Below are positions 25,399 through 25,736 of a DNA stretch of 46,065 nucleotides, in pieces. Both the position numbers and the translations under genes were made by a program. Position 1 is the first letter of the stretch, and every line of letters starts with the position of its first letter. The DNA is taken from assembly GCA_003247225.1 (NCBI GenBank), contig QKAK01000106.1:1-46065 (forward strand). Direction: 5' to 3'. The notes beneath the pieces were generated by a model that did not search any database, had not been told where the DNA came from, and saw nothing but the letters and a program-made list of their open reading frames with translations. Source of the DNA: Spirochaetota bacterium. Its GTDB lineage: Bacteria > Spirochaetota > Spirochaetia > Treponematales > UBA12059.

Positions 25399-25471
25399 GG
25401 GGGTGTAGCTCAGTTGGTAGAGCGCTTGAATGGCATTCAAGAGGTCAGGGGTTCAATTCCCCTCACCTCCA
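25399..25471 (+). tRNA. tRNA-Ala (anticodon GGC)
   Basis: A full cloverleaf of 73 nt. The acceptor stem GGGGGTG pairs with CACCTCC and has the G3-U70 pair that identifies alanine tRNA. The D-arm, the anticodon loop ATGGCAT (GGC at 25432-25434) and the T-arm with GGTTCAATTCC are all in place. CCA is not encoded. It has its own strong promoter and a terminator immediately downstream. Confidence 0.95.
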
Positions 25472-25474
25472 CTT

Positions 25475-25518
25475 AGCAATAAAAAAGACCGCCTACTGGC
25501 GGTCTTTTTTATTGCTAA
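25475..25518 (+). terminator. Very long terminator hairpin after tRNA-Ala
   Basis: Perfect 20-bp arms (25475-25494 with 25499-25518) around a TACT loop, including A- and T-runs that make it bidirectional. The inverted match continues beyond the arms as a copy of the tRNA T-arm (25529-25544). Confidence 0.9.
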
Positions 25519-25736
25519 CCCGAATGGAGTGAGGGGAATTGAACGGTACGAGCGCCGAGCGGAAGCGAGGAAGAGGCGCCAGGATGGCGCCGGAAGCGAG
25601 TACCGCGGGCTGGAGGCTCGAGCCACGACGGCGAGAGCCGGAAGCCAATTCCCTCGCCGGTACCCCGGCGAGTTACAATCCTGCCATACGCAAAGTCGCC
25701 TATTGGCGGTCTTTTTCATTGCTAACCCGGTATGGA
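25499..25736. repeat. Two copies of a terminator-plus-tail sequence
   Basis: The segment starting GGCGGTCTTTTT with the following ATTGCTAACCCG and ATGGAGTG occurs at 25499-25531 and again at 25705-25739. The second copy has a degraded left stem (AAAGTCGCC) and, after ATGGAGTG, a 17-bp palindromic insertion (CGCGAG 25741-25746, CTCGCG 25751-25756) before the shared GGGGAATTG. Confidence 0.7.

What the first reader, a model, noticed from the sequence alone, without database searches (positions are those of the whole stretch)
25451..25544. Inverted copy of the tRNA-Ala 3' arm behind its terminator
The 16 nt at 25529-25544 are the exact reverse complement of the tRNA T-arm (25451-25466), and a 20-bp perfect terminator stem lies in between. 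Read together, tRNA end, terminator and copy form a long imperfect palindrome. This can come from inversion duplication, or it may let the transcript fold onto the tRNA end and affect processing.
Basis: seen in the sequence. Interest (0 to 1): 0.6.

Follow-up and report, generated by a model that had tools for sequence, protein, structure and literature searches.

The report
Folded element copying its tRNA's tail
Behind this tRNA gene sits a roughly 150-base folded DNA element whose two arms are copies of that tRNA's own tail; the same kind of element follows many different tRNA genes throughout the spirochetes and resembles the little-understood rtT repeats of E. coli, so the inverted copy is one arm of a repeated element and not a local accident.

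Summary
In detail: 25529-25544 is the exact inverse of the tRNA-Ala T-arm (with one gap it runs over 20 nt, 25525-25544), behind a 21-bp terminator stem. It is not a one-off inversion. It is the left arm (I) of a repeated unit: tRNA - terminator - I (inverted tRNA tail) - ~103-nt folded core - D (direct tRNA tail). The window holds two units. A covariance model of the core alone finds 17 copies in this genome, all behind tRNA genes, and copies in 79 of 393 spirochete genomes. Of 116 sampled copies 107 have a tRNA upstream (27 anticodons, 106 on the same strand), and the arms match that tRNA and not others. The core covaries very strongly, uses tandem G-A pairs and almost no G-U, which points to folded single-stranded DNA. 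D begins at a fixed point in the T-loop. The closest known thing is Rfam RtT (E. coli rttR/tyrT repeats), which I find has the same layout, but the two models do not detect each other. Best reading: an RtT-like, tRNA-anchored repeat that duplicates or inserts at tRNA tails. Helper enzyme and function are unknown; Y1 transposases and integron integrases show no link. New variant of a known kind.

The parts
25399..25472 (+). tRNA-Ala (GGC); its tail from the T-loop C56 (25454) to 25471 is the source of both arms
   Evidence: ARAGORN; Rfam RF00005 72.3 bits
25473..25518 (+). intrinsic terminator, 21-bp perfect stem, 4-nt loop; first spacer of the unit
   Evidence: read
25544..25646 (+). core of unit 1: P2/P3/P4 arm and P5 arm with an AGGAT loop in P4 and tandem G-A pairs
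   Evidence: covariance model R1, 94.1 bits, E 1.2e-16 in own genome; this copy is one of the ten seed sequences of the model
25646..25655 (+). arm D of unit 1: decayed direct copy of the tRNA tail (CAATTCCCTC)
25697..25731 (+). second copy of the terminator region (start of unit 2)
   Evidence: own-genome match 25697-25739, 91% identity to the first copy
25731..25765 (+). arm I of unit 2 (TATGGAGTG ... GGGGAATTG), interrupted by a small hairpin TCGCGAGAGTACTCGCG
   Evidence: read; sequence
25766..25832 (+). nested insert in unit 2: hairpin - ACGTTCAATACAATTCCTTGCGATG - hairpin
   Evidence: read; similar inserts in other units of this genome
25833..25937 (+). core of unit 2
   Evidence: covariance model R1, 81.1 bits, E 7.4e-14; not a seed sequence
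25937..25946 (+). arm D of unit 2, decayed (CGATTCCCTC)
   Evidence: sequence

Best explanation
SHOWN: the inverted copy is the left arm of one unit of a widespread family of about 150-180-bp elements that sit directly behind tRNA (and tmRNA) genes. Unit: tRNA tail - spacer/terminator - I (inverted T-arm, often also acceptor) - folded core - D (direct copy of the tail from T-loop C56 to the 3' end, in many copies also of the terminator), often in tandem. The arms match whichever tRNA is next door. INFERRED: the element is (or was) a non-autonomous mobile or self-duplicating DNA that works as a folded single strand. Pairing of I with D (8-9 bp) rebuilds half of the tRNA T-arm at the foot of a Y-shaped hairpin; [quoted passage not shown] template copying within the palindromes keeps the arms identical to the resident tRNA. 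In layout it is a relative of the E. coli tyrT/rttR (RtT) repeats.
For: Own genome: 17 core copies below E 1e-3, all behind tRNA genes. Wider: 47 of 79 relatives, 79 of 393 genomes of the phylum. 107 of 116 copies have an upstream tRNA, 106 on the same strand, 27 anticodons; I score to own tRNA median 14 against 6.5 for other tRNAs, D 17 against 5. Core covariation: 1069 both-side changes against 355 in shuffles, score 0.604 against 0.148. G-U is 1.5% of standard pairs against 7.5% in tRNAs of the same loci; G-T:A-C 50:25 against 237:0. D starts at C56/R57 in nearly all copies. P1 is at least 95% paired over 8 bp, then falls. tRNA-Pro of sister species has two alleles and the arms follow the allele. 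Dispersed copies away from tRNAs in one deltaproteobacterial genome with 36 hits indicate mobility. In Leu-CAG the core is inverted between its arms. E. coli and Salmonella RtT units have the same layout at tRNA-Tyr and tRNA-Pro.
Against: No helper gene found: Y1 transposases lie near strong copies at 2 of 40 loci and one of those is explained by a tRNA; full-length integron integrase is no commoner with the element (18 of 47) than without (13 of 32). No clean empty site with exact borders was found; loss and truncation were seen. Vertical persistence within the genus is evident. The near-universal same-strand position behind the tRNA also suits a transcribed RNA. E. coli RtT is a known transcript (PMC4986893).
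Confidence: 0.5

Rival explanations
1. An RNA element: the unit is transcribed by read-through or processing of the tRNA transcript and works as a structured RNA, as proposed for E. coli rtT RNA (linked to the stringent response), with I/D pairing protecting its ends.
For: Same strand as the tRNA in 106 of 107 cases; in the genome identified as probably T. caldarium it lies in the 16S-23S spacer behind tRNA-Ala and so must be transcribed; RtT is annotated as an sRNA released from tRNA operons.
Against: A strong terminator often precedes it; G-U pairs are almost absent compared with tRNAs; D copies the full tail although only 8-9 bp pair with I; one unit is inverted; non-tRNA dispersed copies exist.
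Confidence: 0.3
2. Pure mutational origin: template switching between the arms of the terminator palindrome duplicated the tRNA tail in inverted and direct orientation at each tRNA independently, with no shared element.
For: The arms are tail copies, and direct repeats often run on through the terminator, as local duplication would give.
Against: All units share a ~103-nt covarying core that cannot come from the tRNA.
Confidence: 0.05
3. Decayed ends of tRNA-targeting genomic islands or prophages: D is the displaced tail fragment that integrases leave, and the core is what remains of an attachment region.
For: D starts in the T-loop, a known integrase crossover site (PMC1762012), and islands leave exactly such tail fragments (PMC4383910); an integrase-like frame sits at the same tRNA-Pro tail in G005.
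Against: Units are 150-180 bp, repeated in tandem, all share one core, and no remnant of an integrase is near; the window's unit gave no match in phage and plasmid collections and the core pattern none in viral contigs.
Confidence: 0.1
4. A REP/BIME element moved by a Y1 (RAYT) transposase, or an integron attC-type site moved by IntI.
For: Folded single-strand DNA with variable stems and fixed unpaired features is how attC is recognised (PMC2727003); RtT-like sequences have been filed among BIMEs (PMC2965389).
Against: The own genome has the element and no Y1 gene; IntI does not co-occur with it.
Confidence: 0.05

Closest known systems
RtT RNA (Rfam RF00391; E. coli rttR, tyrT/tyrV 178-bp repeats)
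   Same: Tail of the tRNA - spacer or terminator - inverted T-arm copy - structured core - direct 18-19-nt tail copy, in tandem behind tRNA-Tyr and tRNA-Pro; arms match the neighbouring tRNA. A small module (hairpin with tandem G-A, AGAA linker, next hairpin) of my model aligns weakly (up to 13.8 bits) at many RtT units.
   Different: The RF00391 model finds nothing in 20 relatives, nothing reaches its threshold in spirochete loci, and the spirochete model finds no significant full-length core in an RtT unit. E. coli P1 is about 10 bp and the core differs.
Integron attC sites
   Same: Folded single-strand DNA with variable stems and conserved unpaired features; the ends pair to rebuild a recombination site (PMC2727003).
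   Different: Different fold, no gene cassettes, no association with integron integrase.
tRNA-targeting genomic islands (tyrosine integrases)
   Same: Direct tail fragment starting at the T-loop or T-stem, behind the intact tRNA or tmRNA.
   Different: 150-180 bp, no integrase, with an inverted tail copy; the Islander survey rejects candidates under 2 kb or without integrase (PMC4383910) and so would not list these.
REP/BIME palindromes and RAYT transposases
   Same: Short, repeated, palindromic, non-coding, between genes.
   Different: Anchored to tRNA tails, arms copied from the target, no link to Y1 transposase genes.

Membership tests
RtT (RF00391) | match to the Rfam covariance model | tested here: not met
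   no match at gathering score in the window or in spirochete element loci, none listed up to E 1; 0 of 20 relatives while E. coli rings
RtT (RF00391) | tandem units behind a tRNA, each ending in a copy of the tRNA 3' end | tested here: met
   spirochetes; E. coli, Salmonella, Klebsiella
RtT (RF00391) | inverted T-arm copy that pairs with the direct copy | tested here: met
   spirochetes; E. coli GGGGAAGGAT/ATCCTTCCCC, Salmonella tRNA-Pro GAGGAT/ATCCTC
RtT (RF00391) | released as a stable RNA, effect on the stringent response | not testable with these tools
   no expression data available here
Integron attC | integron integrase present with the element | tested here: not met
   18 of 47 genomes with, 13 of 32 without the element (my tally)
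Integron attC | R''/R' boxes at the ends | tested here: not met
   read by eye on sequences: the I end ...ATTCGAAC does not fit RYYYAAC and the tRNA T-loop does not fit GTTRRRY (box consensus from general knowledge)
REP/RAYT element | Y1 transposase in the genome and near copies | tested here: not met
   no Y1 gene in the own genome; 2 of 40 Y1 loci near a strong copy
tRNA-targeting genomic island | integrase gene between the tRNA and its tail fragment | tested here: not met
   units of 150-180 bp hold no such gene

The most novel reading that the evidence does not exclude
A general class of tRNA-directed mobile DNA, spread from spirochetes to proteobacteria and including E. coli rtT, that acts as a folded single DNA strand, inserts at the T-loop of any tRNA or tmRNA gene, and takes over the tail of its target as its own arms, so that its ends are re-written at each new site.
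Probability: 0.25. Interest if true: 0.85.

Novelty: new variant of a known kind. Interest (0 to 1): 0.62.

Why it matters
If right, a feature long filed as an odd E. coli sRNA by-product (rtT) is one face of a broad family of tRNA-anchored DNA elements, present at a third of the tRNA genes in this spirochete and reaching into an rRNA operon in another. Island surveys discard such elements as too short, no Rfam model matches the spirochete form, and elements whose arms follow the sequence of the neighbouring tRNA raise a clear, testable question about how they are copied. E. coli K-12, which has several copies, gives a laboratory system.

Tried and rejected
Private inversion-duplication: rejected by the shared core and by the many copies. 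Known RNA family: Rfam at gathering and at E up to 1 found nothing for the core besides sub-threshold chance-level hits. Phage, plasmid or viral carrier: no match for this unit and no exact pattern match in viral contigs. Y1/RAYT transposase as helper: two adjacent cases looked promising, but fetching 40 Y1 loci left only those two as strong cases, one of them explained by a tRNA-Gly. Integron integrase as helper: present in the own genome but not associated. First E. coli check with an ungapped 19-mer missed the inverted arm because it is only 10 bp; reading the sequence and folding it showed it. Paper searches gave no description of these spirochete elements, but the library holds open papers only.

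Full report
Observation. The tRNA-Ala(GGC) gene lies at 25399-25472. The 16-nt inverted copy at 25529-25544 and the terminator stem (21 bp, 25473-25518) are real. The longest exact inverted match in the following 600 nt is 16 nt against at most 14 (mean 6.6) in 2000 shuffles. With one gap the inverted copy covers the whole tail, 25525-25544. A read-through RNA would fold the tRNA end onto it.

It is part of a repeated unit. A search of the own genome with the region found other copies, and on inspection these lie beside tRNA genes. Reading behind all 41 distinct tRNA genes showed the layout tRNA - terminator - inverted own tail (I, about +42 to +72) - core - direct own tail (D, about +160 to +187) at 13 of them: Ala-CGC, Ala-GGC, Cys, Glu-CTC, Gly-TCC, Leu-CAG, Leu-GAG, Lys, Met (truncated), Pro-CGG and three Ser; in some the first unit is interrupted or decayed. 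The window carries two units in a row, the second broken by a small nested insert.

The core is a real structured family. Twelve clean cores were folded and aligned. Ten were aligned and used for a covariance model without the tRNA-derived arms (R1), so that finding tRNAs next to its hits is not built in. Covariation on the seed was far above shuffles and slid controls; on 115 distinct hits it is 1069 both-side changes against 355 shuffled, score 0.604 against 0.148, and at most 0.094 when slid (that alignment is fitted to the model and so leans towards it). The fold is a Y: P1 = I/D; one branch P2 carrying P3 and P4; a second branch P5; AGGAT-like loops in P4 and P5. In P2, P3 and P5 tandem GA/GA steps stand in for ordinary pairs and swap with them between copies.

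Distribution. Own genome: 17 hits below E 1e-3, all behind tRNAs. Order: 47 of 79 genomes. Phylum: 79 of 393, also outside the order (stricter filters, so a lower bound). Exact-pattern hits in 63 stretches of named genomes are Treponema and other spirochetes except five stretches from Delta- or Betaproteobacteria bins. Two genomes with 20 and 7 copies have lengths (4,059,867 and 3,239,340 bp) that I recall as Treponema primitia ZAS-2 and T. caldarium; this naming is from memory.

Link to the neighbouring tRNA. Of 116 distinct sampled copies, 107 have a tRNA upstream in the fetched stretch, 106 of them on the same strand, of 27 anticodons; I and D match that tRNA (medians 14 and 17) and not other tRNAs (6.5 and 5). 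The sample was drawn from the best hits. Some copies have a long I with a lost D and others a full D with a shorter I (10 and 37 of 107), so each arm seems to derive from the tRNA on its own account. In the own genus tRNA-Pro(CGG) occurs as two alleles and the arms follow the allele; one species keeps only I, one a truncated core, and in one an integrase-like frame sits directly at the tRNA tail while a unit array with the same tail lies on another contig. Element hits also stand behind tmRNA (L280, L282) and behind tRNA-Sec in one proteobacterial bin (L254).

Anatomy of the arms. I and D pair over 8-9 bp at 95% or more, then pairing drops: this is the 3' half of the T-arm. D begins at C56/R57 of the T-loop in nearly all copies and ends at the tRNA 3' end or runs on through the terminator to about +33 to +52. 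Tandem arrays repeat [D-spacer-I-core]. The T-loop is a known integrase crossover site (PMC1762012; PMC4383910).

DNA or RNA. G-U is 1.5% of standard pairs in the core against 7.5% in the tRNAs of the same loci, and G-T to A-C is 50:25 against 237:0. That is what selection on folded DNA, with tandem G-A mismatches, would give. It does not exclude an RNA role, and the tRNA structures come from a program that draws only standard pairs, which inflates the contrast in A-C.

Mobility. In one deltaproteobacterial genome (G079) 36 copies were found; most of the 17 read lie away from tRNAs, between genes, with a short hairpin D'-spacer-I' in place of the tRNA tail. Nearest neighbours of a unit in another genome are mostly at a different tRNA (51 against 16), though same-tRNA pairs are enriched over chance. 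Both movement and long vertical persistence seem to occur.

Known relatives. In E. coli K-12 the tyrT/tyrV repeats (rttR, Rfam RtT) have the same layout: D (AATCCTTCCCCCACCACCA) - spacer - I (GGGGAAGGAT) - core - D; Salmonella and E. coli tRNA-Pro have units whose arms match tRNA-Pro. RtT is found in 4695 of 5426 E. coli genomes, up to 14 places each. The models do not detect each other at a significant level; a weak partial alignment of one module recurs at many RtT units. I therefore call the spirochete family RtT-like in layout, probably but not provably related. Earlier papers describe RtT as an RNA released from tyrT and other tRNA operons with an effect on the stringent response (PMC4986893) and note RtT-like sequences among BIMEs (PMC2965389).

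Mechanism. What is shown is the anatomy, the tie to the neighbouring tRNA, the covariation and the spread. The insertion or duplication step at the T-loop, the folded-DNA intermediate and the copying of arms are inferred. No helper gene was identified; Y1 transposases and integron integrases were tested and not supported.

Noticed in passing
window 25766-25832: Nested insert in the second unit: two variable hairpins around ACGTTCAATACAATTCCTTGCGATG; similar inserts break other units of this genome (Gly, Cys, Lys, Ala-CGC), sometimes inside a core loop. It may be a second small element family.
   Followed up: partly
L051 932-1036 (G000:C126, tRNA-Leu CAG): The core is inverted between its two arms relative to the tRNA, the only such case among 107.
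   Followed up: partly
L139 and L140: The element sits behind tRNA-Ala(TGC) at two places of a complete spirochete genome; at L139 this is the 16S-23S spacer, and L140 looks like the second rRNA operon.
   Followed up: partly
L280, L282: Element hits stand just behind tmRNA genes.
   Followed up: no
L249-L278 (G079, Deltaproteobacteria bin NC_groundwater_1812): 36 copies in the genome, most of those read lying away from tRNAs behind protein genes, with a short hairpin GAGAAYCC...GGRTTCGAG in place of the tRNA tail.
   Followed up: partly
L340 (G005:C282): A site-specific integrase-like reading frame begins directly behind tRNA-Pro(CGG), which suggests a genomic island at the tail of the same tRNA.
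   Followed up: partly
L011 1570-1720 and L031 (tRNA-Thr GGT, tRNA-Val CAC of the own genome): Direct tail copies (15 and 23 nt) behind tRNAs without an inverted copy or core; another kind of tail repeat.
   Followed up: no
G000:C201:1415-2353: The own genome carries a full-length integron integrase (E 1.6e-132); such integrases are common in the order.
   Followed up: no
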